Assembly: GCA_011525385.1 (NCBI GenBank)
Contig: WTGF01000094.1
Coordinates: 1 to 64,000, forward strand
Length of the DNA stretch: 64,000 bases
Direction: 5' to 3'
Source of the DNA: Chloroflexota bacterium
GTDB taxonomy: Bacteria > Chloroflexota > Anaerolineae > Aggregatilineales > Phototrophicaceae
The notes below the pieces were generated by a model. The model was not told the DNA's origin. It saw only the letters and a program-made list of their open reading frames with translations, and did not search any database. Both the position numbers and the translations under genes were made by a program. Below are positions 12,503 through 46,302 of this stretch, piece by piece; the first letter of the stretch is position 1; each line of letters opens with the position of its first letter.

Positions 12503-14233
12503 ATGACGAAACAGTATCCGGAATACGACATTCCCAAACGTTCCATAAAAGACCGCATCTTCAGCCAGCGCCCGAGCGCTCTAATCATAGAGGGTTTGTT
12601 GGTGCTGGTGGCCGTTGTTGTAACCATCGGGTTCTTGATGCCCGTAGCCCCGGTCGATGACAACCGTGATGAATTGATTGCGGAGCTTCAAGCGATTGTT
12701 GCCGCTCAAGAAGCTGCGTTGTCGAGTGCCGCCGAAGCAGTGCAAGCTGCGGAAGCCGCTGCCCAGCCGTCTGGCATGTTGAGCGCGTCCGCGTTGAAGA
12801 ATCTGGCTTGGTCGAATTTGTCGAACGAAGAATATCGCGCGGCTATCGCCTTGTACAGTATTCTGATCGCCAAGGGCGAGTACGACTCCAACACCTTTGC
12901 GGCGCGCGGTTATGCCTACAGCATGGTCGATGAACATGCCTTGGCAGCGCAGGACTACAGCGTTGTGCTGGAGATGGAACCAGGCAACCTGATGGCTCTG
13001 AACAATCGCTGCTGGGCATTCAGTGAAATTGATCATTACGAACAGGCGCTTGCGGACTGCAACCAGTTGATGTCGCAAGTACCGGAGGCGGACTATCCCT
13101 TCCTCAATCGTGGCATTGTCTACGAAAAGATGGGAGATATGGACAATGCGCTGCCGGACTATGTAGAGTGGATCAAGCGCATCAAGCAGCAGGTCGTCCG
13201 TAATGACAACCTGGTCTGGCAAGATAGTCTGGAAGTGCCGATGTCGGAGGGCGCCGTCTACTTCTTCCCCTTCACCGCGAGCGCGGGCCAGGATGTAGTC
13301 GTGACCGCCGTCAGCAGTCAACGCGACCTGGACGCCGATCCCTTGGTATTGATCCTGGATCCGCAAGGCCAGGCCTTTACCGCGAATGACGACACTGGCG
13401 AGTGGTGGGACAGTTACGTGAACTTCACCGCGCCGGCAAGCGGCGAATACGCAGTTGTCTTGACCCATGCCGGCGGCAGCACCGAGGGTATGATCGAGGT
13501 ATCGCTGGACGTATCCGGCGAGATCACCTTGGGCAACGAAATCGCTGCCTACAAGAGTTTGGCCTACCGCGCGTTGATGTCCGACGACTATGTGGCAGCT
13601 CTGTCCAACTTCCGCAGCGCCTTGAACCTCAATAGCCAGGATGCGGAAGCCATGAACTGGATGGGCGTAACTTACCGCTACATGGCCGAGTACGAGACGT
13701 CGCTGAATTACATCAGCATGGCCATGCGCCTAGATGACGACTACGCACTGCCGTATCTGTCGCGTGGTATCACCTACGAAATGATGGGCGAATCTTCGGC
13801 TAGCGCCGCGGACTATTACCACTATGCGATGCTCAACCGCAGCCGCAGCTTCTATCACAGCGAGTTGCAGGGCGACAATCAGTTCCAGTTGCCCATGCGT
13901 GAAGGTTGGGTTTACAGCATCCCGTTCACCGCGGAAAAGGGACAGACCGTCGACATAGATGTCGACACGGTTGAGCCGGGCTTTGTCGATCCTTTGATCG
14001 TGCTAGTCGGACCGGGCAACCGCGCCCTGATCGGCGATGACGATATTTCTCGCAACGAATATGACGCGAGCATTGACGGTTTCAGGCTGCCGGCGGATGG
14101 TCAATATGTTTTGATCGTCAGCCACGCCGAAGGCGGAGCCAACGGCAACATCAACATTGACATCGAATTGAACGATCCGGTACCGATGAGCGCTTACGAA
14201 TTTGGTTCCGGATGCTCAGGCGGCGGCTACTAA
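12503..14233 (+). CDS. Membrane-anchored TPR protein with two PPC-like domains
   Basis: 576 aa. A short cytoplasmic N-terminus is followed by a membrane segment (about residues 27-50) and a coiled-coil with Ala/Glu-rich heptads (about 55-90). TPR repeats cover about 95-220 (for example ALAAQDYSVVLEMEPGNLMALNN). A beta-sandwich resembling a bacterial pre-peptidase C-terminal (PPC) domain spans about 235-340. A second TPR block (about 345-450) and a second PPC-like domain (about 460-565) follow; PLIVLVGPGNRALIGDDD is typical. The repeated TPR-PPC arrangement suggests an envelope scaffold. The N-terminal module matches the previous gene. A strong terminator follows 27 bp after the stop. Confidence 0.75.
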   Translation: MTKQYPEYDIPKRSIKDRIFSQRPSALIIEGLLVLVAVVVTIGFLMPVAPVDDNRDELIAELQAIVAAQEAALSSAAEAVQAAEAAAQPSGMLSASALKNLAWSNLSNEEYRAAIALYSILIAKGEYDSNTFAARGYAYSMVDEHALAAQDYSVVLEMEPGNLMALNNRCWAFSEIDHYEQALADCNQLMSQVPEADYPFLNRGIVYEKMGDMDNALPDYVEWIKRIKQQVVRNDNLVWQDSLEVPMSEGAVYFFPFTASAGQDVVVTAVSSQRDLDADPLVLILDPQGQAFTANDDTGEWWDSYVNFTAPASGEYAVVLTHAGGSTEGMIEVSLDVSGEITLGNEIAAYKSLAYRALMSDDYVAALSNFRSALNLNSQDAEAMNWMGVTYRYMAEYETSLNYISMAMRLDDDYALPYLSRGITYEMMGESSASAADYYHYAMLNRSRSFYHSELQGDNQFQLPMREGWVYSIPFTAEKGQTVDIDVDTVEPGFVDPLIVLVGPGNRALIGDDDISRNEYDASIDGFRLPADGQYVLIVSHAEGGANGNINIDIELNDPVPMSAYEFGSGCSGGGY

Positions 14234-14260
14234 CCCCGAAGAAACATTAGCATCCGAAAA

Positions 14261-14288
14261 GGGCAGGTCAGGCGACCTGCCCTTTTTT
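14261..14288. terminator. Bidirectional intrinsic terminator
   Basis: GGGCAGGTC, loop AGGC, GACCTGCCC, then TTTTTT. On the minus strand the same hairpin is followed by TTTTC. It lies exactly between two convergent genes, and the T-run overlaps the stop codon of the aldo/keto reductase gene. Confidence 0.92.
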
Positions 14289-15225
14289 ATCCTCCAGTCG
14301 CGGAAACGACGTTGCGGAAGATGTGCTGCAGTCTTGCGATGTGCTGCGGTGGTAGGGGCGGTCGCGCGAATGAGGCGATGTTAGCCGCGAGGTGACTTGG
14401 ATTGCTGGTGCCGGACAGGACAACATGTACGCCGGGCTCATCACGACAGAAGCGATAGGCGGCATCGGTTGTATCGGGAGCTGCGCCGTCGGTCCGTAAA
14501 AACCCCAAGGGAGCATCCAGGTCGATTTCGCGCGCGTCGAGTTCGCCACTTTCAATTAGCGATTCAAGTGTGCGGCGCAGTTGCTCCGGACGGCTAAGCG
14601 CCAGCCGAACAGCGAACATGATGAGCACGCCGATTTGTTTTTCGATCGCTTGTTTCAGCACAGTTTCCCGCGCGGTTTGATTGAGCAGATTGAAGCCGAC
14701 CATAAGCACGTCCCAGATGTCGTCTTGCAGCGCGCGCTGCAGCATGTTGTGTCCGAGATCGCGGCCCCAGGACTCGGTCACCCCTAGAAAGCGAATCATT
14801 CCCCGCCCTTGCAGGTCTTGCATAAGCGGAGCGATTTCGTTGGCGTAATAGTCATAGTGCTCGGGTCGCAAGCCGTGCAAGTGATAGATATCGACATAAT
14901 CAGTCCGCAATCTGCGCAGGCTATTTTCAAGTCCGGCGCGGACTTCGGCTCTGGTGATGGTGGTCCCGCCAAGGCGCTTCTTGGTGGAAATGATGATCGA
15001 AGCGCGATCGCGCTGGGCGACCGCCTTGCCGATGATGTCTTCGGTACGGTACGCTTCCGCCGTGTCGATGAAGTTGATACCGGCATCCAGGGCTTGCAGT
15101 ACGAGGGAGACTGATTCGGCTTCACTTTTGACCTCGTCCCTTTGACCGAGGCGACTGGGTCCGCCGGCGCCGAGCCCCATGACGGATACTTTCAATCCGG
15201 TGCGTCCCAAGATGCGAGTTTCCAT
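14287..15225 (-). CDS. Aldo/keto reductase
   Basis: 312 aa from METRILGRTGLKVSVMGLG at 15225, preferred over the longer ORF start because the family begins here and GAGGG lies upstream. Motifs: INFIDTAEAYRTEDIIGKA (catalytic Asp and Tyr), IIISTKKRLGG (catalytic Lys), DYVDIYHLHGL (catalytic His), and a C-terminal VVLSGTSNPSHLAAN cofactor-binding segment. It reduces aldehydes or ketones with NADPH as a cytosolic TIM-barrel enzyme; the substrate is unknown. The gene runs convergent to the TPR/PPC gene and shares its terminator. Confidence 0.9.
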   Translation of the reverse strand: METRILGRTGLKVSVMGLGAGGPSRLGQRDEVKSEAESVSLVLQALDAGINFIDTAEAYRTEDIIGKAVAQRDRASIIISTKKRLGGTTITRAEVRAGLENSLRRLRTDYVDIYHLHGLRPEHYDYYANEIAPLMQDLQGRGMIRFLGVTESWGRDLGHNMLQRALQDDIWDVLMVGFNLLNQTARETVLKQAIEKQIGVLIMFAVRLALSRPEQLRRTLESLIESGELDAREIDLDAPLGFLRTDGAAPDTTDAAYRFCRDEPGVHVVLSGTSNPSHLAANIASFARPPLPPQHIARLQHIFRNVVSATGG

Positions 15226-15357
15226 GAGTATCCCTCGTATCGTGATTGCTACAAAAGTTGAATAAAGGTATTGTGCCGCAAAAGACAAGTTTTTTCGATG
15301 TTGCGAAAGATCCGGAGTGGGTATCGGGGCAACCTGGATTCAGTTCAGTGATTCTCG

Positions 15358-15402
15358 GGCGACCTGATAGGTCGCGTAGACACTGACCGCCGGTCGCCCC
15401 TA
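15358..15402. repeat. Dispersed GGGCGA palindromes, nested pair
   Basis: GGGCGACCTGATAGGTCGC, then GACCGCCGGTCGCCCCTAC. The outer GGGCGACC/GGTCGCCC can also pair across the whole 45 bp. It belongs to the same family as the copies at 118, 5475 and 7798 and lies in the gap between the divergent aldo/keto reductase and DUF1028 genes. Confidence 0.6.
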
Positions 15403-15636
15403 CATTTTCACCATAAGTGAACCTGATAGGGGGCAGCTATTAGCTGACCCGTCACTATCTGCGAATTGATGAGGGCTGGCAGGTATTTCATATCCTCGAA
15501 ATTCACATTTCCTTATCACGGCCGCTCGGCGCGAAACCGGCGAATTTAGACTACCATGCTCACACAGAAGAACTAGCCTTCTCGTCGCATGAGCGACGCG
15601 GTTTGTTAAAAAAGTGATTTGCTCGATTTTCGTCAG

Positions 15637-15667
15637 TTGCCAATAGCGGGACAAAGTGCGCTATAAT
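15637..15667 (+). promoter_or_regulatory. Candidate promoter for the DUF1028 gene
   Basis: TTGCCA (15637-15642) and a consensus TATAAT (15662-15667) with a 19-bp spacer, 29 bp upstream of the ATG. A GAGG box lies 5 nt before the start. Confidence 0.5.
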
Positions 15668-15696
15668 GCGAATCTCAGCGGAGATCTGAGGTTGCG

Positions 15697-16569
15697 ATGA
15701 ATATCAGTACCTTCTCCATAGTCGCATATGCGGAAGACGAAGAAGCCTGGGGCGTTGCGGTGGCTAGCAAGTTCCCGGCTGTGGGAGCGGTGGTCCCTTG
15801 GGCGCGGGCAGGGGCCGGAGCGGTGGCGACTCAGTCCTACGCCAAAATCGGCTATGGTCCTGATGGCTTGGATTTGCTGGAAAAAGGGGCTTCTGCGTCG
15901 GAGGCATTGGAGTCGCTTCTGGCGAGTGATGAGCAAGGGAAGGTTCGACAGGTAGCAATGGTTGACGCACAGGGGCAGGTCGCGGCGCATACCGGCAGCG
16001 ACTGTCACGACTGGGCCGGGCACAAGACCGGCAATGGCTTTAGTGTACAGGGCAATCTGCTGGCGGGCGAAGCTGTTATCGAAGCGATGGCAAGTGGCTT
16101 TCTCACGTCGGAAGGTGAATTGGCGGATCGCCTGGTGAGAGCGCTGCGCGCTGGCGAAGTCGCCGGTGGCGACCGCCGAGGCAAACAGTCGGCGGCAATG
16201 CACGTGGTACGCGCGAATGGCGGCTATGGTGCCGATAACGATCGCTATTTGGACTTGCGCGTTGATGACGCGCCGGAACCGGTTTTGGCGCTGATGGATC
16301 TCGTGCAATTGCATCATCTCTATTATCAATCGGCGAAGGCGGAGGATCTCTTGCCGATTGATGACGCGATCGCCCGCGAATTACAAACGATTATGATCGC
16401 GGAGGGATATATGACGGGCGAGATCAATGGCCTGTGGGATGAGGTTTGTCAGCAGGTCTTCTGGATGCTGATCGGTAACGAGAACCTGGAGATGCGTTGG
16501 ACGCTGGAGGAGAATCGACGCTCCATTGATCGCGTCGTGCTGGAATACCTGCGAAAGCGCTACGGCTGA
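15697..16569 (+). CDS. DUF1028 domain protein
   Basis: 290 aa. The first ~210 residues match DUF1028: NISTFSIVAYAEDEEAWGVAVASKFPAVG, ATQSYAKIGYGPDGLDLL, DCHDWAGHKTG and SVQGNLLAG, MLHVVRANGG-like (here AAMHVVRANGG) and DLRVDDAPEPV. The fold is Ntn-hydrolase-like and activity is presumed hydrolytic. The C-terminal ~80 residues (LLPIDDAIARELQTIMIAEGYMTG..) resemble a small peptidoglycan-binding-like extension seen in some members. No signal peptide. The GT39 gene follows by 35 bp, so they may be co-transcribed. Confidence 0.85.
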   Translation: MNISTFSIVAYAEDEEAWGVAVASKFPAVGAVVPWARAGAGAVATQSYAKIGYGPDGLDLLEKGASASEALESLLASDEQGKVRQVAMVDAQGQVAAHTGSDCHDWAGHKTGNGFSVQGNLLAGEAVIEAMASGFLTSEGELADRLVRALRAGEVAGGDRRGKQSAAMHVVRANGGYGADNDRYLDLRVDDAPEPVLALMDLVQLHHLYYQSAKAEDLLPIDDAIARELQTIMIAEGYMTGEINGLWDEVCQQVFWMLIGNENLEMRWTLEENRRSIDRVVLEYLRKRYG

Positions 16570-19973: not shown

Positions 19974-20000
19974 GGGGCGATTCCAGTGAATCGCTCCTTA
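19974..20000. repeat. Dispersed GGGCGA-type palindrome, diverged copy
   Basis: GGGGCGATTCCAGTGAATCGCTCCTTA: arms GCGATTC/GAATCGC, centre CAGT, flank related to CCCCTAC. It lies 19 bp after the SPFH stop and 7 bp before the broken leader hairpin that ends the cassette array. Confidence 0.5.
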
Positions 20001-20006
20001 TTGGGC

Positions 20007-20038
20007 TCGCCATGTCGCAAGCCGCCGCGCATTCCCCC
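20007..20038 (-). repeat. Leader hairpin, broken copy at the left end of the array
   Basis: On the minus strand: arm GGGGGAATGCGCGGC and loop GGCTTGCGACATGGCGA are present. The expected complementary arm is replaced by GCCCAATAAGGAG, which leads into the flanking chromosome. The array therefore ends inside this element. It lies downstream of the last propeller gene and precedes no gene. Confidence 0.75.
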
Positions 20039-20115
20039 AGCCGGAATACAGTGAAGCGATGGTCCCGCTTCTTGTCAGAGCTTTTGCTCCTTGTCTCATG
20101 TATATGTTTTGTAAA

Positions 20116-21285
20116 CTAATGCTGAGGCACCGGCAGAGTTACTAGCAACTGTTTCGATTCAAGGTTCCATATCCACAGTCTGCCATCTGGACCGATTGAC
20201 ACCATTAACTCGCCATTTGGGTAGATTGCTGCCGCCCGGCCGGGATATTCGGTGATTTCAAAGTTGCTTTTGATATTCCATACGGCGATTCCAGATTCTC
20301 CGCTCCCAATCATGAACCCACCATTCAAAGTAAATGACGCTGGAGTATAGGCATAATTCAAGGCCTCAATTACGGGCTCGTCGGTCGCCATATTCCAAAC
20401 CCATGTCCATTCCTCGAACAGACACTTGTAGACTAACAAGAGAAGGGAATTATTGTAGCTAAATCGCAATCTATTCCGGGCTCCGCAGTCGGGCTCGCTA
20501 GTCAGCTTGCTGGTTTTCAATGCCCATGTATCGGTCTCGTAAACCAGTACCTTTACTTTACCTGTCATGAACAAATCCGCTGTTACGACGGCAAACAAGG
20601 TGCCATCTGGGCTGAAGGCACCTGTTCTGCCATGCTCTGTCAAGTTTGCCAGCGACTGCCCGAGACCGTTTTCAATATCAAACTCGTAAATGTGTGCGTT
20701 GTCGCTTGGTCCCGACCATCTCGCCAACTGGCTCCAATCGGGGCTTAGCCAAGTATAGTAAACCCGCTCTCTCCCACGTTGGGCATCAATTGCGTGGATT
20801 TGTTGGCCCGTATGTATATTCCATATCGACATCTTGCTGTCCCTAAACCACCAGTCACTAAAGGTCATGACATAGTTACTGTCAGGGCTGAAAGAAGTCC
20901 GCCCAAAGTCAGTCGGCGGCTCTGTCGATGTTCTTTGGAGATCGAGGATGCTAAGGCCCTCCTCTATGTCGAAGATAGCCAACTCGGGCAAACTTGCCAC
21001 GGCAAGATAGCGATTATTCGGGCTAAAGATCATCCTTGCGCTACTCGCGATGCCTCCTCCCAGAAACCGAGGTGGCAGCAGGAGATTTTCCAGATCGTAA
21101 ACCCAGATTTCATGAGCCGCATTCGGATATTCGGTCCCCTTGACACCAGACTGTATAGCCAAGTACCGTCCGTTTTCGGACATGGCAATGGCTATGACTT
21201 GCCATGATGGAGCTTGTTCTTGCGCTTGACTTATGTGAAGACAACAGGCAAGCGACAGAAAAAAACACCGATCGCTAGAATCCAT
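20116..21285 (-). CDS. Secreted WD40-like beta-propeller, class A (cassette 7), signal peptide frameshifted
   Basis: 389 aa as drawn. Repeated blade motifs are visible (SENGRYLAIQ, FSPNNRYLAVA, SIWNIHTGQQIHAID, LSPDWSQLARW, FSPDGTLFAVV, GPDGRLWIWNLESKQLLVTLPV). The N-terminus as drawn (MDSSDRCFFLSLACCLH) is a poor signal peptide. An upstream ATG at 21299, with a GAGG box, reads MHIQKWILAIGVFF and would join LSLACCLHISQAQEQ perfectly if the T7 run (21259-21265 on the + strand as A7) had one more base. So either a slippage mutation, a phase-variable tract or a sequencing error has broken the secretion signal. The C-terminal segment is shared with the other class A propellers. Confidence 0.75.
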   Translation of the reverse strand: MDSSDRCFFLSLACCLHISQAQEQAPSWQVIAIAMSENGRYLAIQSGVKGTEYPNAAHEIWVYDLENLLLPPRFLGGGIASSARMIFSPNNRYLAVASLPELAIFDIEEGLSILDLQRTSTEPPTDFGRTSFSPDSNYVMTFSDWWFRDSKMSIWNIHTGQQIHAIDAQRGRERVYYTWLSPDWSQLARWSGPSDNAHIYEFDIENGLGQSLANLTEHGRTGAFSPDGTLFAVVTADLFMTGKVKVLVYETDTWALKTSKLTSEPDCGARNRLRFSYNNSLLLLVYKCLFEEWTWVWNMATDEPVIEALNYAYTPASFTLNGGFMIGSGESGIAVWNIKSNFEITEYPGRAAAIYPNGELMVSIGPDGRLWIWNLESKQLLVTLPVPQH

Positions 21286-21312: not shown

Positions 21313-22806
21313 CTACGTACTCGATTCCGTACTTACGTAAAAGAGACCAGGGATTCTCTCCGGATCTATGTTTTCGCCGTATAGGCGCTCATCATTATTC
21401 TGAGACAGAGTGCTGCGTTCGGCATACCCAAAAAAGAAATGGACGAAATCGGGATCGCTTCGATAAGTTTGCAGCGCATCTGCCATCTCCCCTGGCTTTT
21501 TCGAGCCATAGTACACAATTGCTAAATCCAGGTGCTGATTATTGTGGTAGTCCTTGGTGTTCACGTACGGGAGCTTCTCCCCTGTTTCAGGGTGTATGTT
21601 ATTGGGGTCTGTCAGTCCTGTGTTCCCGGTTTTTCCTATGATGGCTTCGTCCTGAGTATCGATAATCTTGCCGGGATAGATGTGCTCGGTATTGATTTCG
21701 GATAGGTGACCATAGGCAATGAATATCCTTCCATCTTCCCGCCATTGTCCCGGACTATGGTTGGTGTCACTTGACAAACTTCGCATAATTGTTTCGTCTT
21801 CCAAGTATACTGACGCTGGAAAACTGATGACAACATAGTTTCCTAATGCTGTATCGTTGGATGCCGCTGGGACAACAAATTCCACTCTGACATCCGGACC
21901 AACTACAGGTGACTGCACTTGAAATGGTCTATATATATCGGTTATCTTGTTATAATCCTGTGAAATCACACCCGCTCCGCTTGCGTCGTACGGCGCGAAA
22001 GACATTTTGACCGGCACTTCTTCATCATCGGCTACGATCGATTGCAGTATATACTCCGTTGGAGTGGCAGTAAGATCTGGAGCATCAGTGGCGATGATTT
22101 GCGCAGATGTTTGTGTAGGATAGTTCTCACGCTCTACAAATGGAACGAGGTCAAATTCAGCGTCTGGATCTAAAGTGTAAATCCAGTATTCTTCGTTGTC
22201 TATTTCAATCAGATACGCTGCGTTACCCGAATCCGATGTTCGCAGATACCTAAATTGCGCTGGCGTGCCGGAGATTTCATAAGTCATGTGAGGTGAATCC
22301 ACACCTGGCACAAATGTTTCTTGCTTGTAGGCCCTCAGAATCCCTAAAACTTCTATCCCAATACTAGGCTGTTCCCTCGTGTTGTCCGCCAGGTCTTGCG
22401 CCGTCGTCTCGACCGGCGCCGAATCCGCTTGCGCCAACCTCTTATCCCAATCCGAGTGTCTGACTTCGTCAAGCAATTCCAACGCACGTCGATCAGATTC
22501 ATCGTCCAAGCCCGATCCCGCGAACTGGGACATATACTCAGCATATTGTTCCTTGGACGGCAAGCCATACTCTTTGACAACCACCAGGGCAACCCATGCC
22601 AGGTCATCATCCACTATGCTCAAGAGATAATCGATATGCTGTCTTTGCCCTTCGCTTACAGCTGTGTAGCCAGTCAAAGACGTCGATTCTTCCGGCTCGA
22701 AGTCCAGTAGTCCCGCTTCGCTGATATCGCGTATTCCTTCGTGCTCCGAGAAGCCGGCAATAGCTTGCCCGCCTGAATTTGCGGCGAGGGCGTAGCACTT
22801 ACTCAA
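21313..22806 (-). CDS. Type I modular cassette protein, 5'-truncated copy (cassette 7)
   Basis: 497 aa from a TTG. Residues ~10-215 are nearly identical to the other type I copies (AIAGFSEHEG, GLPSKEQYAEYMSQFAGSGLDDESDRRALELLDEVRHSD region), followed by an SH3-like beta stretch. The C-terminal half is variable and carries a degenerate M23/LytM-like domain: GNYVVISFPASV, IAYGHLSEI, IGKTGNTG, NQHLDLAIVYYGS. The catalytic HLH is HLD, and no upstream HxxxD motif is seen, so peptidase activity is doubtful. The Pro-rich N-terminus of the full-length copy is absent. The leader's AAAAGG box instead faces GTG ATC ACG ATT CCT AGG CTT GAG TAA, a 9-codon mini-ORF that overlaps the TTG. There is no signal peptide. 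Confidence 0.7.
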   Translation of the reverse strand: MSKCYALAANSGGQAIAGFSEHEGIRDISEAGLLDFEPEESTSLTGYTAVSEGQRQHIDYLLSIVDDDLAWVALVVVKEYGLPSKEQYAEYMSQFAGSGLDDESDRRALELLDEVRHSDWDKRLAQADSAPVETTAQDLADNTREQPSIGIEVLGILRAYKQETFVPGVDSPHMTYEISGTPAQFRYLRTSDSGNAAYLIEIDNEEYWIYTLDPDAEFDLVPFVERENYPTQTSAQIIATDAPDLTATPTEYILQSIVADDEEVPVKMSFAPYDASGAGVISQDYNKITDIYRPFQVQSPVVGPDVRVEFVVPAASNDTALGNYVVISFPASVYLEDETIMRSLSSDTNHSPGQWREDGRIFIAYGHLSEINTEHIYPGKIIDTQDEAIIGKTGNTGLTDPNNIHPETGEKLPYVNTKDYHNNQHLDLAIVYYGSKKPGEMADALQTYRSDPDFVHFFFGYAERSTLSQNNDERLYGENIDPERIPGLFYVSTESST

Positions 22807-22860
22807 GCCTAGGAATCGTGATCACCTTTTGTCTAAACATCCAGTTGATTTGTGAATCAG

Positions 22861-22902
22861 CGAGATGAGGCTCGCCCTGTCGCAAGCCGCCGCGCGTCTC
22901 CC
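22861..22902 (-). repeat. Leader hairpin of cassette 7, chimeric arms
   Basis: Loop GGCTTGCGACAGGGCGA intact. The 5' arm (minus strand) is GGGAGACGCGCGGC, of the type II/III leader class. The 3' arm is GCCTCATCTCG, identical to the type I leader of cassette 4. The arms no longer pair well beyond GGC/GCC. This is what a crossover inside the loop would leave. Confidence 0.8.
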
Positions 22903-22959
22903 TGCCGGATTACGGTAAAGCGGATGGTCCCGCCTCAAATGAATGAACCAGCGTTTGTA

Positions 22960-24685: not shown

Positions 24686-24904
24686 AGCATCGGCTGTGAT
24701 TTCATTTCTGCCAACCAGCCTATCATACGGAACGTCGTCCGGGTCATATACTTCCAGACTTTGTTGCAGTGATTGAATCTGCGTCGCGATATGCGGCGCC
24801 TTGTCAAAGATGAAATGATCTGGCGACGGCGCTCCGATCTGTTGATAGATCTGAGGCAGGGGTATAGCTCTTTCCTTTCTAAAGCATCAAAAGGATCTGT
24901 GAAT

Positions 24905-24949
24905 GGGAGCCGCGCAGCTCGCCCTGTCGCAAGCCGCCGCGCATCTCCC
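24905..24949 (-). repeat. Leader hairpin of cassette 6
   Basis: Minus strand: GGGAGATGCGCGGC, loop GGCTTGCGACAGGGCGA, GCTGCGCGGCTCCC. Two of the non-Watson-Crick positions are U-G and G-U in the minus-strand RNA but A/C clashes on the other strand, which favours a transcribed structure. It is followed by TTCACAGATCCTTTTGATGCTTTAGAAAGGAA. Confidence 0.85.
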
Positions 24950-25027
24950 TGCCGGAATACGGTAAAGCGGATGGTCCCGCTTGTTGTCAGTGCTTTTGCT
25001 TCTTATCTTATGTATATGTTTTGTAAA

Positions 25028-27554: not shown

Positions 27555-27630
27555 GCCTACATACTGCAGACCGTCAGCGCCTAGAACGCCATCATCTATC
27601 CTCGCTAAAGCATCAAGTCGATCTGTGAAT

Positions 27631-27675
27631 GGGAGCCGCGCAGCTCGCCCTGTCGCAAGCCGCGGCGCATCTCCC
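27631..27675 (-). repeat. Leader hairpin of cassette 5
   Basis: Minus strand: GGGAGATGCGCCGC, loop GGCTTGCGACAGGGCGA, GCTGCGCGGCTCCC. It is followed by TTCACAGATCGACTTGATGCTTTAGCGAGG and an out-of-frame ATGATG. Confidence 0.85.
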
Positions 27676-27754
27676 CCAGCCGGAATACAGTGAAGCGATG
27701 GTCCCGCTTCTTGTCAGTGCTTTTGCTTCTTATCTTATGTATATGTTTTGTAAA

Positions 27755-30509: not shown

Positions 30510-30560
30510 GCCTAGGAATCGTGATCACCTTTTGTCTAAACATCCAGTTGATTTGTGAAT

Positions 30561-30605
30561 CAGCGAGATGAGGCTCGCCCTGTCGCAAGCCGCCTCATCT
30601 CGTTG
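30561..30605 (-). repeat. Leader hairpin of cassette 4
   Basis: Minus strand: CGAGATGAGGC, loop GGCTTGCGACAGGGCGA, GCCTCATCTCG. This is a perfect 11-bp stem whose sequence is unrelated to the GGGAG-type stems of other cassettes, while the loop is identical. It is followed by TTCACAAATCAACTGGATGTTTAGACAAAAGG. Confidence 0.88.
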
Positions 30606-30704
30606 AAGCATTTCGGATTATTGAATTTGCTGCGGATCTTGGTCAATCGTAACTGCTGATACTGTTACCAATTCTGTTTCTCCTATGTTGATCGGCTATC
30701 CAAC

Positions 30705-32322: not shown

Positions 32323-32541
32323 GGCATCGGCTGTGATTTCATTTCTGCCAACCAGTCTATCATACGGAACGTCGTCCGGGTCATATACTTCCAGACTTTG
32401 TTGCAGTGATTGAATCTGCGTCGCGATATGCGGCGCCTTGTCAAAGATGAAATGATCTGGCGACGGCGCTCCGATCTGTTGATAGATCTGAGGCAGGGGT
32501 ATAGCTCTTTCCTTTCTAAAGCATCAAAAGGATCTGTGAAT

Positions 32542-32586
32542 GGGAGCCGCGCAGCTCGCCCTGTCGCAAGCCGCCGCGCATCTCCC
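32542..32586 (-). repeat. Leader hairpin of cassette 3
   Basis: Same arms and loop as the cassette 6 leader (GGGAGATGCGCGGC / GCTGCGCGGCTCCC, loop GGCTTGCGACAGGGCGA), within a several-hundred-bp stretch that is virtually identical between the two positions. Confidence 0.85.
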
Positions 32587-32664
32587 TGCCGGAATACGGT
32601 AAAGCGGATGGTCCCGCTTGTTGTCAGTGCTTTTGCTTCTTATCTTATGTATATGTTTTGTAAA

Positions 32665-35305: not shown

Positions 35306-35381
35306 GCCTACATACTGCAGACCGTCAGCGCCTAGAACGCCATCATCTATCCTCGCTAAAGCATCAAGTCGATCTGTGAAT

Positions 35382-35426
35382 GGGAGCCGCGCAGCTCGCC
35401 CTGTCGCAAGCCGCGGCGCATCTCCC
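35382..35426 (-). repeat. Leader hairpin of cassette 2
   Basis: Minus strand: GGGAGATGCGCCGC, loop GGCTTGCGACAGGGCGA, GCTGCGCGGCTCCC, the same as the cassette 5 leader. Confidence 0.85.
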
Positions 35427-35505
35427 CCAGCCGGAATACAGTGAAGCGATGGTCCCGCTTCTTGTCAGTGCTTTTGCTTCTTATCTTATGTATATGTTTT
35501 GTAAA

Positions 35506-36696
35506 CTAATGGCGAGGCACCGGCAGAGTTACTAGCAACTGTTTCGATTTGATATTCCATATCCATACCTTGCCATCAGGACCGATAGCAACCATTAACT
35601 CGCTGTTGGGGTGGATTTGCGGATTTATTCCCGGATAGACCGACATCTCAAAATCGTTTTTTGCATCCCAGACTTCAATCGTAGAACCTCCAGGTAAATT
35701 GCCACTTTGAGTTACCAAAACTCTATCGTCTAGGGTGATGAATCTGATTCGCCCTGCTTCTTCGGATTGAAGCAGCAATGCGCCGGTTTCGATATCCCAA
35801 ACGAGTAATCGTCCGTACCAATCGCACTTGAAAATCAGCCAGGGATTAATATGTCCGAAAGCCAGGGTCACATCCGCATTGCCGCAGGAATGTGCGCCGA
35901 GCATCTGTACGTACGTCAATTCCCAAGTGTCTGTCCGAAAGATCCTTATCTCGTCATCCGGTGTCACGAGCGCAAACAGCGAACTATCCGGGCTGAAAGC
36001 GACGCCTCTTTCATCACGAATATCGACTGAAACAGAACCGAGAGTTGAGCCAAGCCCCTGTTGAATATCAAATTCATGTATCTGGATCCCGTCAGGATGC
36101 CACCAATCCAAAAACTGTCGCCAATCAGGACTTAACCGGGGGAGAGGTAACCTCGACTGCGCAGCTCGTGCTGAGGGAATAGTCAGTATTCGCGCCCCCG
36201 CGCCAATATCCCATATCGACATTTCATGATCGTCCGTTGCCCACCAGTCGCTTAAGGACATGATGAACTTACCATCCGCGCTATAAGAGACCGTACTGAA
36301 GTCCGAAGCTATTTCGGTAGCAGTACTCGGCAGGTCAAGTATTGGGGTGTTTTCTGCTATGTTGAAAATCTGCAATCGGTGATGTTCGGCGAGTGAGATA
36401 TGCCGGCTGTCAGGACTGAAAGCTATTAAGGTTCCGTAAAATTCTGCCCCCCGAAGATGACGCGGTGGGGATAAAAGATCGTTAAGATTGTATATCCATA
36501 CGCCGCTATCGTAACCCGACTCATTCCTATCTTCTTTCTCCACATGAGCACCATATTTTACGGCTAAACGCCGTCCATCGTTGGATATTGAGATTGAGAC
36601 AGCTTCCCAAGGATCCTGTTCTTGCGTCTGTATCCGATAGGGCAAACATGCAAGGAAACAGACTAAAAGCGCAAAAATGTATGCTCGATTATTCAT
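35506..36696 (-). CDS. Secreted WD40-like beta-propeller, class A (cassette 1)
   Basis: 396 aa from the ATG at 36696 (MNNRAYIFALLVCFLACLPYRIQTQ, signal peptide). The ATG overlaps the type I stop as ATGAATAA. The track start at 36822 lies inside the upstream gene. Blades: ISNDGRRLAVKYG, FSPDSRHISLAEHHRLQIFN, MSIWDIGAGARILTIP, LSPDWRQFLDWW, FSPDSSLFALVTPDDEIRIFRT, GPDGKVWIWNIKSKQLLVTLP. It is the partner of the only front gene with an intact start, so it is the propeller most likely to be translated by coupling. Predicted to act outside the cytoplasm; ligand unknown. Confidence 0.85.
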   Translation of the reverse strand: MNNRAYIFALLVCFLACLPYRIQTQEQDPWEAVSISISNDGRRLAVKYGAHVEKEDRNESGYDSGVWIYNLNDLLSPPRHLRGAEFYGTLIAFSPDSRHISLAEHHRLQIFNIAENTPILDLPSTATEIASDFSTVSYSADGKFIMSLSDWWATDDHEMSIWDIGAGARILTIPSARAAQSRLPLPRLSPDWRQFLDWWHPDGIQIHEFDIQQGLGSTLGSVSVDIRDERGVAFSPDSSLFALVTPDDEIRIFRTDTWELTYVQMLGAHSCGNADVTLAFGHINPWLIFKCDWYGRLLVWDIETGALLLQSEEAGRIRFITLDDRVLVTQSGNLPGGSTIEVWDAKNDFEMSVYPGINPQIHPNSELMVAIGPDGKVWIWNIKSKQLLVTLPVPRH

Positions 36697-38575: not shown

Positions 38576-38614
38576 CGTCTGTTCCTTTCTAAAACATCAA
38601 ATGGATCTGTGAAT

Positions 38615-38661
38615 GGGGGGATGCGCAGCCTGCCCTGTCACAAGCCGCTGCGCATGCCCCC
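38615..38661 (-). repeat. Leader hairpin of cassette 1
   Basis: Minus strand: GGGGGCATGCGCAGC, loop GGCTTGTGACAGGGCAG, GCTGCGCATCCCCCC: 14 of 15 positions pair. The stem sequence differs from the other cassettes on both sides while pairing is kept. It is followed by TTCACAGATCCATTTGATGTTTTAGAAAGGAACAG and an in-frame ATG. Confidence 0.88.
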
Positions 38662-38685
38662 AACCGAATTACGGTGAAGCGCTGA

Positions 38686-42331: not shown

Positions 42332-42414
42332 TGTATGTCCTCCTGTTTTCAACTTTTGTCATTTCTCGTGTATAGTGGATTTGCCCTGCCAAACATCAAG
42401 CAGGTTTGTGAAAT

Positions 42415-42457
42415 TGTCGTGTGAACTTCGCCCTGCCACAAACCAGTCCACAGGACA
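42415..42457 (-). repeat. Leader hairpin of tail-fibre-like gene 6
   Basis: Minus strand: TGTCCTGTGGACT, loop GGTTTGTGGCAGGGCGA, AGTTCACACGACA: 12 of 13 positions pair, including one G-U. The loop differs at two positions from the commonest form. It is followed by TTCACAAACCTGCTTGATGTTTGGCAGG. Confidence 0.85.
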
Positions 42458-42539
42458 CCCTCTCTCTGCTAGGTACTCTGTAATCTCCCATTTCTTATTG
42501 TCTCACCTGCACCTCCTCCTTTTTATATTTGCTGATCTC

Positions 42540-42998
42540 TTAGATCTCCCGCACCCAGAATTGGGCGTGGGAGCGCAGAGTCGTTGCATGGTTTCTGCCT
42601 TGGAGCTTGAAAGTATGAGATCCGGCGCTCAAATTCTGAACCAGGTGAGTAAAACTCACAAGCTCATGATTTACGTCCCCACGTCTCAAACCATACTCGT
42701 CTTGACCCAGTCGGGTCCCATCAACTTCAACATCAATCCTGAATTGCTTGTTTACCACCACGCCATGAAAATGAACCATGACATCTCCACCTGCGGTGGT
42801 AATCGTCAGATTGAGGTTGCTATGGATATCGACGAACGTTCTGCTGTTCGCAATAGCTATATCCGCCGTCGTCGTGTGGGCTGCAACCGCATTTCGTACT
42901 CTGCCGAGTTCTACCAAATTTTCGCCGACCGCGTTCATAGCGCCGGACCTCATCAGCTCTCCGACCTCCCAATCCGTTTTGGGTGTTGTCCAAGCCAT
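42540..42998 (-). CDS. Tail-fibre-like paralogue 5
   Basis: 152 aa. Conserved start WTTPKTDWEVGELMRSGAMNAVGENLVEL, an IHSNLNLTITTAGGDVMVHFHG strand pair, a variable centre (VVVNKQFRIDVEVDGTRLGQDEYGLRR), then VSFTHLVQNLSAGSHTFKLQ and SHAQFWVREI. AAAGGAGAA precedes the ATG. It has its own leader hairpin and ribosome-binding site. Confidence 0.75.
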   Translation of the reverse strand: MAWTTPKTDWEVGELMRSGAMNAVGENLVELGRVRNAVAAHTTTADIAIANSRTFVDIHSNLNLTITTAGGDVMVHFHGVVVNKQFRIDVEVDGTRLGQDEYGLRRGDVNHELVSFTHLVQNLSAGSHTFKLQGRNHATTLRSHAQFWVREI

Positions 42999-43081
42999 TG
43001 TATGTTCTCCTTTTATCGACTTTTGTCATTTCTCATGTATACCGGATTTGTCCTGCGAAACATCAAGCAGGTTCGTGAAAT

Positions 43082-43124
43082 TGTCCTGTGGACTTCGCCC
43101 TGTCGCAAGCCGGCCTACAAGACA
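43082..43124 (-). repeat. Leader hairpin of tail-fibre-like gene 5
   Basis: Minus strand: TGTCTTGTAGGCC, loop GGCTTGCGACAGGGCGA, AGTCCACAGGACA. The stem is kept by two wobble pairs (U-G and G-U) where other copies have C-G or other pairs. Confidence 0.82.
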
Positions 43125-43204
43125 CAAGCGTGTGCTGCGTACTCTGTAATCTCCTAGTTCTTATTGTCTCATCTACGCCTCCTCTCTTCGTACTTGCTGA
43201 TCCT

Positions 43205-43669
43205 TTAGATCTCCCTCACCCAGAATTGGGCGCCGGCGCGCAGAGTCGTTCCTCTCTTTGTCTGAAGTTTGAAGGTGTGTGAGCCAGCGTTCAAACCCTG
43301 TATCAGACGGGTAAAGCTCACAAAATGCCACTGGCTATTGTCTGTAGTCATCATGCCATTGTTGGTATCACCTCGTCGGGTTCCATCTACTTCAACATCA
43401 ATGATAACGACCCCACGAGTGAACGGACCGTGGAAATGAATCAGTACATCTCCACCGGTGGTGGTAATCGTCAGATTCAGGTTGTCGCTATCGATGTCGT
43501 CAAATGTGTTATTGGTGTTTGGCGTTACAATATCTGCCGTCGTCGTGTGCGCTGCTACCGTCTTTCGTACTCTGTCGAGTTCTGCCAGGTTCTCGCTGAC
43601 TGCGTTCAGATCGCCGGGGCTCACCAGCTCTCCGACCTCCCAATCCGTTTTGGGTGTTGTCCAAGCCAT
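43205..43669 (-). CDS. Tail-fibre-like paralogue 4
   Basis: 154 aa. Start WTTPKTDWEVGELVSPGDLNAVSENLAEL; beta domain DSDNLNLTITTTGGDVLIHFHG; variable centre (PFTRGVVIIDVEVDGTRRGDTNNGMMTTD); end FVSFTRLIQGLNAGSHTFKLQ, AGAQFWVREI. Its N-terminal segment (ELDRVRKTVAAHTTTADI) is closest to paralogue 5, suggesting these two split most recently. Confidence 0.75.
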   Translation of the reverse strand: MAWTTPKTDWEVGELVSPGDLNAVSENLAELDRVRKTVAAHTTTADIVTPNTNNTFDDIDSDNLNLTITTTGGDVLIHFHGPFTRGVVIIDVEVDGTRRGDTNNGMMTTDNSQWHFVSFTRLIQGLNAGSHTFKLQTKRGTTLRAGAQFWVREI

Positions 43670-43751
43670 TGTATGTTCTCCTTTTATCGACTTTTGTCAT
43701 TTCTCATGTATACCGGATTTGTCCTGCGAAACATCAAGCACTTCGTGAAAT

Positions 43752-43793
43752 TGTCCTGTGGACTTGGCCCTGTCACAAACCAGCCACAGGACA
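43752..43793 (-). repeat. Leader hairpin of tail-fibre-like gene 4
   Basis: Minus strand: TGTCCTGTGG perfectly paired with CCACAGGACA, loop region GGTTTGTGACAGGGCCA, with a 1-nt length difference at the base of the loop. Confidence 0.82.
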
Positions 43794-43874
43794 CAAGTGT
43801 GTGCTGCGTACTCTGTAATCTTCCTAGTTCTTATTGTCTCATCTGCACCTCCTCTCTTCGTACTTGCTGAACCT

Positions 43875-44360
43875 TTAGATCTCCCGTACCCAGAATTGGG
43901 CGTCAGGATATAGTATGAGTCCACGACCAGCGTGATTCCCTTTCCACTGTATTTTGAAGGTATGGGATCCAGCGCTTAAGCCCTGAATCAATCGGTCAAA
44001 AGACAGGGAATGACGGCGATCGCCGTGGTGAAGATCGATATGTGTAAGTCCATCGTCACCGCCTTGGCGAGTTCCGTCGACATCAATGTCGAAATGACAG
44101 CGGCTGACGCTAACATTACGTGTCATTGCACCGTCAAAATGAACCAGCACGTCTCCGCCTGTTGTCGTAATCGTCAGATTCAAGTTGGTGCTGTCAAGAT
44201 CGGAAAATTCATTACCGATTACTCTGATCTCCTCGGTCGTCGTGTAGATGGCGGTCGCCGGATTCTTAAGCGTCGCCAGGTTCTCGCCGACCTCGTTCAT
44301 ATCGCTGGCGGCAATCAGTTCTCCGGTCTCCCAATCCGTTTTGGGTGTCGTCCAAGCCAT
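43875..44360 (-). CDS. Tail-fibre-like paralogue 3
   Basis: 161 aa. Start WTTPKTDWETGELIAASDMNEVGENLATLKN, almost identical to paralogue 6. The centre is different (GAMTRNVSVSRCHFDIDVDGTRQGGDDGLTHIDLHHGD) and the end is SFDRLIQGLSAGSHTFKIQ, DAQFWVREI. The close N-terminal match to paralogue 6, two genes away, with a different middle, fits shuffling of variable blocks or repeated duplication. Confidence 0.75.
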   Translation of the reverse strand: MAWTTPKTDWETGELIAASDMNEVGENLATLKNPATAIYTTTEEIRVIGNEFSDLDSTNLNLTITTTGGDVLVHFDGAMTRNVSVSRCHFDIDVDGTRQGGDDGLTHIDLHHGDRRHSLSFDRLIQGLSAGSHTFKIQWKGNHAGRGLILYPDAQFWVREI

Positions 44361-44444
44361 TGTATGTTCTCCTTTTTTACGATTTTGTTACTTTCTCGCG
44401 TATACTGGATTTGCCCTGCTAAACATCAAGCAGGTTTGTGAAAT

Positions 44445-44487
44445 TGTCGCGTGGGCCTCGCCCTGTCACAAGCCGGTCCACAAGACA
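44445..44487 (-). repeat. Leader hairpin of tail-fibre-like gene 3
   Basis: Minus strand: TGTCTTGTGGACC, loop GGCTTGTGACAGGGCGA, GGCCCACGCGACA; 11 of 13 positions pair with one U-G wobble. Confidence 0.82.
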
Positions 44488-44567
44488 CAAGTGTGTGCTG
44501 CGTACTCTGTAATCTCCCAGTTCTTATTGTCTCTTGCGCGCTGCCTCCTTTCGTATTCGCTGATCCC

Positions 44568-45026
44568 TTAGATCTCCCGCACCCAGAATTGGGCGCCAAT
44601 TCGCAATGTAGTTCCATACCTTGCTTGGAGTTTGAAAGTATGTGATCCGGCGCTAAGGTTTTGAATCAGGCGAGTAAAGCTCACAATGGGATTACGGTTC
44701 CAGCCGGTGCGCAAAATGCCATCGTCGGTACCACCATGTCGGACACCATCAACTTCGATATCAAAAGTACAATGCCCATCTGTCTGCGAACCATGAAAAT
44801 GAACCAGAACATCCCTACCTGTAGTGGTTATTGTCAAGTTCAGATTGTTGCTATCCACATCTTCAAACGTGCCATCATTTGGAAGACTTATCGCCTCTGT
44901 CGTGGTGTAGGCCGCTGCCGCAAGACCCTCCTTAAGCGCCACCAGATTTTCCCCGACCGCGTTCAGATCGCCGGGGCTCACCAGCTCCCCGACCTCCCAA
45001 TCCGTTTTGGGTGTTGTCCAAGCCAT
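44568..45026 (-). CDS. Tail-fibre-like paralogue 2
   Basis: 152 aa. Start WTTPKTDWEVGELVSPGDLNAVGENLVALK; beta domain DSNNLNLTITTTGRDVLVHFHG; variable centre (SQTDGHCTFDIEVDGVRHGGTDDGILRTG); end VSFTRLIQNLSAGSHTFKLQ, GAQFWVREI. The ATG is preceded by AAAAAGGAGG. Own leader hairpin. Confidence 0.75.
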   Translation of the reverse strand: MAWTTPKTDWEVGELVSPGDLNAVGENLVALKEGLAAAAYTTTEAISLPNDGTFEDVDSNNLNLTITTTGRDVLVHFHGSQTDGHCTFDIEVDGVRHGGTDDGILRTGWNRNPIVSFTRLIQNLSAGSHTFKLQARYGTTLRIGAQFWVREI

Positions 45027-45108
45027 TGTATGACCTCCTTTTTCCGACTTTTGTCATTTCTCGTGTGTACTGGATTTGTCCTGCTCAACATCAAGCACTT
45101 TGTGAAAT

Positions 45109-45151
45109 TGTCGCGCGGGCCTCGCCCTGTCACAAGCCGGTCCACAAGACA
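45109..45151 (-). repeat. Leader hairpin of tail-fibre-like gene 2
   Basis: Minus strand: TGTCTTGTGGACC, loop GGCTTGTGACAGGGCGA, GGCCCGCGCGACA. Almost the same as the gene 3 leader; one extra difference in the 3' arm converts a U-A pair to U-G. Confidence 0.82.
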
Positions 45152-45221
45152 CAAGTGTGTGCTGCGTACTCTGTAATCTCCCAGTTCTCATTGTCTCTTG
45201 CGCGCTTCCTCCGCTGATCCC

Positions 45222-45710
45222 TTAAACCTCCTGTACACCGAATTGGGCGCCGGCACGAAACCTTACTCTCCCGCCCCCTTTCATCTGAAGCTTAAAAATA
45301 TGGGAGCCAGCGCTTAGATTCTGAATCAGGTAGGTAAAACTCACATTATGCGAATAGTTACGGTCAATTGTGAATCGTATGATTTCACCAACATCGCCAC
45401 CTTGCAGAACGCCATCGACATCAATATCAAAGTGGAGGTGCATACCTTTATTAGTATCATCGCGATATGCTGAGCTAGAAAAGTGTGCCAGTACATCCCT
45501 ACCAGAGGTCTCAATTGTCAGGTTGAAATTCTCGCTATCAACATCGGTAAATGTGCTTGAATTCCTAAGAATATCTTCTGTCGATCTACCAGCTGCTGCT
45601 GCTGGCGCCTGATTTCTCAACATCGCTAGATTCTCGCCAATCGCATTCAAATGAGCGGCGGTAATTAGTTCGCCGTCGGCCCAATCGGTCTTAGGTGTTG
45701 TCCTAGCCAT
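45222..45710 (-). CDS. Tail-fibre-like paralogue 1 (most diverged)
   Basis: 162 aa, first gene of the minus-strand block. Start ARTTPKTDWADGELITAAHLNAIGENLAML; beta domain DSENFNLTIETSGRDVLAHFS; variable centre (SAYRDDTNKGMHLHFDIDVDGVLQGGD); end VSFTYLIQNLSAGSHIFKLQ, GAQFGVQEV, where the others have AQFWVREI. Its divergence and position suggest it is the oldest or least homogenised member. GAAAGGAGAA precedes the ATG. Confidence 0.72.
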   Translation of the reverse strand: MARTTPKTDWADGELITAAHLNAIGENLAMLRNQAPAAAAGRSTEDILRNSSTFTDVDSENFNLTIETSGRDVLAHFSSSAYRDDTNKGMHLHFDIDVDGVLQGGDVGEIIRFTIDRNYSHNVSFTYLIQNLSAGSHIFKLQMKGGGRVRFRAGAQFGVQEV

Positions 45711-45791
45711 ACTTTTCTCCTTTCTTCAATCTTTGTTACTTTCTTGCATATAATGGACTTGCCCTGCTAAACATCAAGCACTTTGTGAAAC

Positions 45792-45833
45792 TGTCCTGTG
45801 GATTTGCCCTGTCGCAAGCCAGCCCACAGGACA
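45792..45833 (-). repeat. Leader hairpin of tail-fibre-like gene 1
   Basis: Minus strand: TGTCCTGTGG paired with CCACAGGACA (10 bp perfect), loop region GGCTTGCGACAGGGCAA. It is followed by TTTCACAAAGTGCTTGATGTTTAGCAGGGCAAGTCCATTATATGC. TTGATG and TATATG could act as a promoter with a long (19-bp) spacer, as in the neighbouring copies, where the second box is TATACA. Confidence 0.82.
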
Positions 45834-46302
45834 CAAACGCGTCCTTCCGCAATTGAAATCAGTCCTCAGCGATCCTTTGATGATCTTCTCCTTTATCACT
45901 TCTAGTTTGATGATATGCACCAATAATAGCACGTTTGTGCTAATAAGCGCGACTGTTTAGTCGCTTTTTATAAATCGAACCGAGTTCTTTCTATTTTCAC
46001 ACCGTTTATGAATGATTTAAGCCAGTCCTGCGTAACTGCCGACGCACTGCCTCGGAATGCGTACCACGAAGGCTGTCAAGCGCTAGGCGGGATCGACGTA
46101 TCCACTATGTTTGCTGACCATGAGCCGCCCACATCACCTCTTTCGTTGGCGAGCGCGTAACAGGGTATTCCATACAGTTGCCGTTGAATGGCTTGACCCC
46201 GGTATCGGACAAGCCTTTTTGCTTTCGAGTTTAGAATCGGTTCTTTGTACTCTGGAATACAAACAACACTTGGTAGCGCGTTTTTTGTTTCTCGGGGGAT
46301 TC
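45834..46302. other. Intergenic gap at the right edge of the accessory block
   Basis: About 470 bp with no convincing gene. Apart from tandem hairpins near 45.93-45.97 kb I see nothing recognisable: no tRNA, integrase scrap or attachment-site-like direct repeat. Confidence 0.5.
45928..45969 (+). terminator. Tandem hairpins with GTTT loops; second one terminator-like on + strand
   Basis: AGCAC-GTTT-GTGCT (45928-45941), spacer AATAAGC, then GCGACT-GTTT-AGTCGC-TTTTT (45949-45969). The second is a classical intrinsic terminator shape on the + strand, although no + strand gene lies directly before it. On the minus strand the first hairpin is followed by ATTATT and could weakly end the kinase transcript. 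Confidence 0.5.

What the first reader, a model, noticed from the sequence alone, without database searches (positions are those of the whole stretch)
22861..22902. Chimeric leader hairpin: arms from two classes joined at the conserved loop
The cassette 7 leader has the GGGAG-class 5' arm and the cassette 4-class 3' arm, which no longer pair. The change-over is within the identical loop. This implies that crossovers between cassettes occur in the loop, either by ordinary homologous recombination across the short conserved core or by a dedicated mechanism.
Basis: partly seen in the sequence, partly recalled or inferred. Interest (0 to 1): 0.72.

Follow-up and report, generated by a model that had tools for sequence, protein, structure and literature searches.

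The report
Mosaic copy of a repeated leader hairpin
One copy of a repeated RNA hairpin, which sits in front of effector-like and phage-tail-like genes in one genus of Chloroflexota, is a recombinant of two versions of that hairpin; ordinary recombination among near-identical gene copies explains it, and the more notable result is the hairpin family itself, which appears undescribed.

Summary
The leader at 22821-22913 (- strand) has the 5' arm of the GGGAG class and the 3' arm of the class found at 30575. Its left 61 bp are 96.7% identical to the 24919/32556 copies; its right 117 bp are 100% identical to the 30575 copy. The switch lies in a 22-bp stretch shared by both parents. Among 131 distinct leaders only two combine arms of different classes: this one and one in a sister genome with other neighbours. 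Both keep 9 of 14 stem pairs, have no significant fold, and precede ORFs without an ATG start.
The leader is a covarying structured RNA: 13 of 14 pairs show two-sided changes. It precedes an ATG gene on the same strand in 101 of 125 cases, occurs in 18 of 34 genomes of the genus, was not found elsewhere in the sampled class, and matches nothing in Rfam.
The claim that crossovers occur in the loop is only partly supported. Tract ends are spread from 260 bp before to about 400 bp after leader cores; 13 of 262 fall in a core. No integron integrase was found. Best explanation: intragenomic recombination or gene conversion in a decaying array of displaced effector/WD40 cassettes, resembling orphan Rhs modules.

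The parts
22821..22913 (-). Chimeric leader (whole element as scored by the covariance model)
   Evidence: 63.9 bits against 81.7-83.4 for its parents
22889..22932 (-). GGGAG-class left part: 44 bp of spacer and 5' arm
   Evidence: with the core, 96.7% identical to the copies at 24919 and 32556
22870..22891 (-). 22-bp stretch common to both parent classes; the switch lies somewhere inside it
   Evidence: sequence comparison
22858..22871 (-). c4-class 3' arm GCCTCATCTCGCTG
   Evidence: class assignment
22132..22888 (-). c4-type tract shared with the 30575 cassette
   Evidence: first 117 bp 100% identical; about 97.2% over 760 bp
21313..22806 (-). Orphan effector-like ORF (497 aa, module A), no ATG start and no Shine-Dalgarno-like sequence
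20116..21285 (-). WD40-type partner ORF of cassette 7
   Evidence: position and paralogy to the WD40 genes of the array
30524..30616 (-). Parent c4-class leader, arms paired
24868..24960 (-). Parent GGGAG-class leader
32505..32597 (-). Second GGGAG-class leader, equally close as a donor
27594..27686 (-). Leader of cassette 5 (module B); first 317 bp from the core 100% identical to the 35396 copy
35345..35437 (-). Leader of cassette 2 (module B)
38578..38672 (-). Leader of the main full-length effector-like gene (36689-38575)
42377..45845 (-). Six further leaders, each in front of a paralogue of about 160 aa (MAWTTPKTDW...)
19988..20067 (-). Half leader at the array end: GGGAG 5' arm and core joined to a terminator-like inverted repeat
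   Evidence: same structure in G009, G017 and G032

Best explanation
Shown: the element is a copy of a structured RNA leader that stands directly upstream of genes of a phage-tail-like operon and of effector-like genes. Shown: it lies in an array of displaced ('orphan') effector-module/WD40 cassettes; its two halves match two other copies in the same array; and the same WD40 gene in a sister genome is followed by a c4-type 5' flank. Inferred: RecA-type recombination or gene conversion between near-identical cassettes replaced the c4 5' half of cassette 7's leader by a GGGAG 5' half. One end of the replaced tract lies in the shared core and the other 44 bp upstream. Inferred: the damaged stem persisted because the orphan ORF behind it has no proper start, so the leader is under little selection. 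Inferred, function of the intact leader: a cis-acting hairpin at or near the 5' end of the message, read through its invariant loop by some protein or RNA, that sets expression of the tail-like operon and its effectors.
For: Own-genome donors for both halves: left 96.7%, right 100% over 117 bp and about 97.2% over 760 bp. Other long near-identical tracts between cassettes, 545-760 bp at 96-98%, show frequent exchange. In G009 the same C1-WD40 gene is followed by a c4-like 5' flank homologous to that of 30575 (alignment score 30, maximum of 500 shuffles 2), so c4 is probably the older state. RNA nature: 13 of 14 stem pairs with two-sided changes over 131 distinct sequences, 86.1% of cells paired against 61.4% shuffled, and slid controls at 31-44%. 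An ATG gene on the same strand follows in 101 of 125 cases, 94 of them with a Shine-Dalgarno-like sequence. In L029 a perfect TTGACA-16-TATAAT promoter ends 16 bp before the leader. Orphan Rhs modules lack translation starts and are proposed to recombine with the main gene in Salmonella (PMC3967940).
Against: Core-window junctions are more frequent than a uniform expectation (13 against 2.7). The second chimera joins the same two classes at the same place. All four arrays end in a half leader cut at or just after the core, which repeated cutting at the core would also explain. No expression data exist. The role of the leader is inferred from position and covariation only.
Confidence: 0.72

Rival explanations
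1. Dedicated, integron-like exchange: a recombinase acts on the hairpin as folded single-stranded DNA and swaps cassettes from core to core, so arms of different origin are joined.
For: All cassettes have one orientation and one core each; array ends are cut at or just after a core in four genomes; the two chimeras have the same junction; core junctions are above uniform expectation.
Against: No integron integrase above the cut-off in the genome (best 42 bits, cut-off 265). Most tract ends lie outside cores. Stem covariation and position in front of start codons fit an RNA. Several units hold two genes, and solitary leaders occur far from any array. No empty site was seen.
Confidence: 0.06
2. 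Deletion rather than conversion: cassette 7 once had a GGGAG leader, a further cassette and then a c4 leader in tandem; slippage or annealing between the two cores removed what lay between.
For: The 22-bp identical core is a direct repeat; deletions inside cassettes are seen in G009 (truncated WD40 gene and a lost core).
Against: In G009 the same C1-WD40 gene is followed directly by a c4-like flank, so a replacement needs fewer steps. The GGGAG patch is only 44 bp beyond the core.
Confidence: 0.13
3. Assembly artefact: the metagenome assembler joined two repeat copies.
For: The genome has 131 contigs and the array holds repeats that are up to 100% identical over 317 bp.
Against: The two parents share only 22 bp at the junction, which is short for a false join; the left half carries two private substitutions; a sister genome has an analogous chimera with different outer neighbours.
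Confidence: 0.05
4. The leader is not an RNA element but a DNA site, for example an operator or a replication or recombination hairpin.
For: Invariant TTGTGA and TCACAA motifs form a dyad.
Against: Strand-specific position upstream of genes, placement just after a promoter, and covariation in which G-U pairs are common.
Confidence: 0.08

Closest known systems
Orphan rhs-CT/rhsI modules of Enterobacteriaceae (PMC3967940)
   Same: A full-length main gene followed by downstream truncated module/partner pairs without translation starts; near-identical stretches serve recombination and give chimeras.
   Different: No Rhs core was identified. Partners are WD40-type proteins, immunity is untested, and most orphans here keep a copy of a structured leader, which the passages read from that paper do not describe for Rhs orphans.
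Repeated cis-acting RNA leaders shared by a set of operons (the kind catalogued in PMC2864571, such as JUMPstart)
   Same: A conserved structured element upstream of functionally related genes, with covariation in the stem and an invariant core.
   Different: No Rfam family matches. The element recurs up to six times inside one operon and is confined to one genus in the samples searched.
Integron attC sites
   Same: Hairpins with variable arms between same-strand cassettes (general knowledge).
   Different: Conservation is in the loop and not in outer boxes; sites stand 5' of genes; no integron integrase above the cut-off.

Membership tests
Structured cis-regulatory leader RNA | Stem kept by compensatory changes | tested here: met
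   13 of 14 pairs with two-sided changes, 535 cells against 206 in shuffles
Structured cis-regulatory leader RNA | Located upstream of genes on the same strand | tested here: met
   101 of 125 followed by an ATG ORF, median 44 nt from the model end
Structured cis-regulatory leader RNA | Changes expression in response to a factor | not testable with these tools
   no expression data
Known Rfam family | Match to a curated covariance model | tested here: not met
   no match up to E = 1 over 19800-46400 and none at gathering score over the window
Polymorphic toxin locus with orphan modules | Main gene followed by displaced modules that lack start signals | tested here: met
   definition from PMC3967940
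Polymorphic toxin locus with orphan modules | Recognisable toxin domain at the C terminus | tested here: inconclusive
   Only a sub-threshold Peptidase_M23 match, 17.2 bits against 28.7; a JAB-like HNHPNG motif was read by eye
Polymorphic toxin locus with orphan modules | Partner gene gives immunity | not testable with these tools
   WD40-type partner, function unknown
Integron attC array | Integron integrase in the genome | tested here: not met
   best match 42 bits, cut-off 265; the genome is about 94% complete
Integron attC array | Conserved outer R boxes, variable loop | tested here: not met
   the loop is the invariant part and the outer arms vary

The most novel reading that the evidence does not exclude
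The hairpin has two roles: a regulatory leader RNA, and a folded single-strand site where an unknown recombinase swaps effector cassettes from core to core.
Probability: 0.05. Interest if true: 0.8.

Novelty: new member of a known kind. Interest (0 to 1): 0.42.

Why it matters
The chimera is a natural record of how effector cassettes are reshuffled in this Chloroflexota genus, and a ready-made broken mutant of the leader. The leader family is a candidate new regulatory RNA: it marks tail-like operons and scattered effector-like genes as one probable regulon and gives a simple sequence handle for finding more of them.

Tried and rejected
Pseudoknot between the loop TTGTGA and the downstream TCACAA: complementarity is near universal (95.8% of cells), but there is no covariation beyond shuffles (282 of 500 reach it), and with a 14-bp stem the short linker could not span it, so it is at most an alternative pairing. 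Rfam search: nothing. Exact core-plus-TTCACA pattern in viral contigs: none. Integron integrase: none above the cut-off. Empty array site (5' arm and core joined directly to the terminator beside the tail gene): none found. Internal promoters in the array: no excess over shuffles (15 against 21.9). Literature searches found no description of such a leader, but the library is limited. A comparison of the array with phage records was not completed (query too long) and not repeated.

Full report
Observation. The window carries 14 copies of the core GGCTTGYGACAGGGCRA, all on the - strand: 13 full leaders and one half leader at the array end. The copy at 22872-22888 has a GGGAG-class left side and a c4-class right side (c4 = the class of the leader at 30575, in front of cassette 4). 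Its left 61 bp, core included, differ from the copies at 24919 and 32556 by two bases; its right 117 bp are identical to the copy at 30575, and similarity continues at about 97.2% over 760 bp. The two parent classes share 22 bp (22870-22891), so the switch cannot be placed more finely.

How unusual it is. I aligned 150 leaders (131 distinct) from the window and from same-genus genomes with a covariance model. Clustering of 5' and 3' arms flags only two discordant leaders: this one and L060:12014-12106 in genome G017. Both keep 9 of 14 pairs, near the 8.0 expected for a random GGGAG x c4 combination and below the 13.0-13.1 within classes. Their folds are not better than shuffles (z -1.15 and 0.30), while the parents score -3.56 and -4.89. 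A few other leaders pair as poorly (6-9 of 14, counts partly lowered by gaps) without being cross-class chimeras. Recombination within a class would not be seen by this test.

What the leader is. The stem covaries strongly: 13 of 14 pairs have changes on both sides, 86.1% of cells pair against 61.4% in shuffles, and slid controls fall to 31-44%. The alignment was fitted to the model's structure and so leans towards it, but the first alignment, made by MAFFT without structure, gave the same picture (12 of 14 pairs). The loop, a following TTCACARA and CTTGATGTTT are near invariant. An ATG ORF on the same strand follows in 101 of 125 cases, 94 with a Shine-Dalgarno-like sequence. In a solitary copy (L029) a perfect sigma-70-type promoter ends 16 bp before the leader. 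This fits a 5' leader RNA. It occurs in 18 of 34 genomes of the genus and in none of the sampled genomes outside it among 298 of the class (stricter filters). Exact-pattern hits in named genomes are all Chloroflexota metagenome-assembled genomes; I believe, from the isolate names, that many come from sponges, but that is not verified here. No Rfam family matches.

Genes behind it. The operon is conserved in four genomes: a large protein with a kinase domain; four to six paralogues of about 160 aa, nearly all with a leader; a 752-aa open frame (Fn3 domains, matches to phage tail proteins); a small protein matching major tail proteins; then a leader and a long main gene, proline-rich at its start in the window, with a WD40-type or similar partner. 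Downstream follow truncated modules with WD40 partners, most with their own leader copy. In the window the module order is A B C A B C A. Modules 4 and 7 have no ATG start. This resembles orphan Rhs modules, which are described as displaced fragments usually lacking translation starts and as partners for homologous recombination (PMC3967940). Toxin activity and immunity are not shown here.

Where breakpoints lie. In G009 the C1-WD40 gene that precedes the chimera is followed by a flank homologous to the c4 flank of 30575 (score 30, shuffled maximum 2). So the c4 left half is probably older, and the GGGAG half replaced it. The replaced tract ends in the core on one side and 44 bp upstream on the other. 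The chimera in G017 has different outer neighbours on both sides, and its right half is closer to its own genome's c4 copy (94.0%) than to the window's chimera (85.6%). That suggests separate events, although one old event followed by homogenisation is not excluded. Over four arrays, 262 collapsed tract ends scatter from -260 to about +400 around leaders; 13 fall in cores against 2.7 expected if uniform. BLAST tract ends are rough proxies for breakpoints, and the core is the most conserved part, so this excess is not evidence of a special mechanism.

Mechanism. The simplest account is homologous recombination or gene conversion between near-identical cassettes, with the shared core as one end of a short tract, and loss of selection on the leader of an orphan cassette. 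A dedicated integron-like system is unlikely: no integron integrase passes its cut-off, most junctions are elsewhere, and the conserved part is the loop. It is not excluded, because all four arrays end in a half leader cut at or just after the core and both chimeras share one junction. Assembly error is possible in a metagenome-assembled genome but needs a false join at 22 bp and a parallel case in a second genome.

Limits. No reads, transcripts or experiments were available. Functions of the effector-like and WD40-type proteins rest on weak domain matches. The regulatory role of the leader is inference from position, covariation and gene association.

Noticed in passing
window 19988-20067: The array ends in a half leader: GGGAG 5' arm and core, then a terminator-like inverted repeat in place of the 3' arm. 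The same structure closes the orthologous arrays of G009, G017 and G032.
   Followed up: partly
window 42377-45845: In the leaders of the paralogues of about 160 aa, the conserved CTTGATGTTT opens a short frame with similar codons across copies (such as ATG TTT AGC AGG ACA AAT CCA GTA TAC ACG AGA AA.), possibly a leader peptide; read by eye, not tested.
   Followed up: no
all leaders, loop TTGTGA and downstream TCACAA: Near-universal complementarity between loop and downstream motif, without covariation support; it may be an alternative pairing or two separate binding motifs.
   Followed up: partly
L026, L027, L028, L029, L076: Solitary leaders away from the arrays precede long genes, several with proline-rich N termini; the gene in L111 (same locus as L028) also has a JAB-like HNHPN motif. 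They probably form one regulon with the tail-like operons.
   Followed up: partly
window 22889-22932 and equivalent places: The 44-60 bp before GGGAG-class leaders contain a second small hairpin (AAGCGGGACCATCCGCTT) whose position coincides with several tract ends at about -44 to -35.
   Followed up: no
L064 (G009) 14145-16330: In G009 the array tail is decaying: a c4 leader has lost its core and a WD40 gene has an internal deletion.
   Followed up: partly
L071, L072 (G000 contig C15): Further tail-like operon genes in the same genome with the same leaders, including additional proteins that resemble tail-fibre or effector proteins.
   Followed up: no
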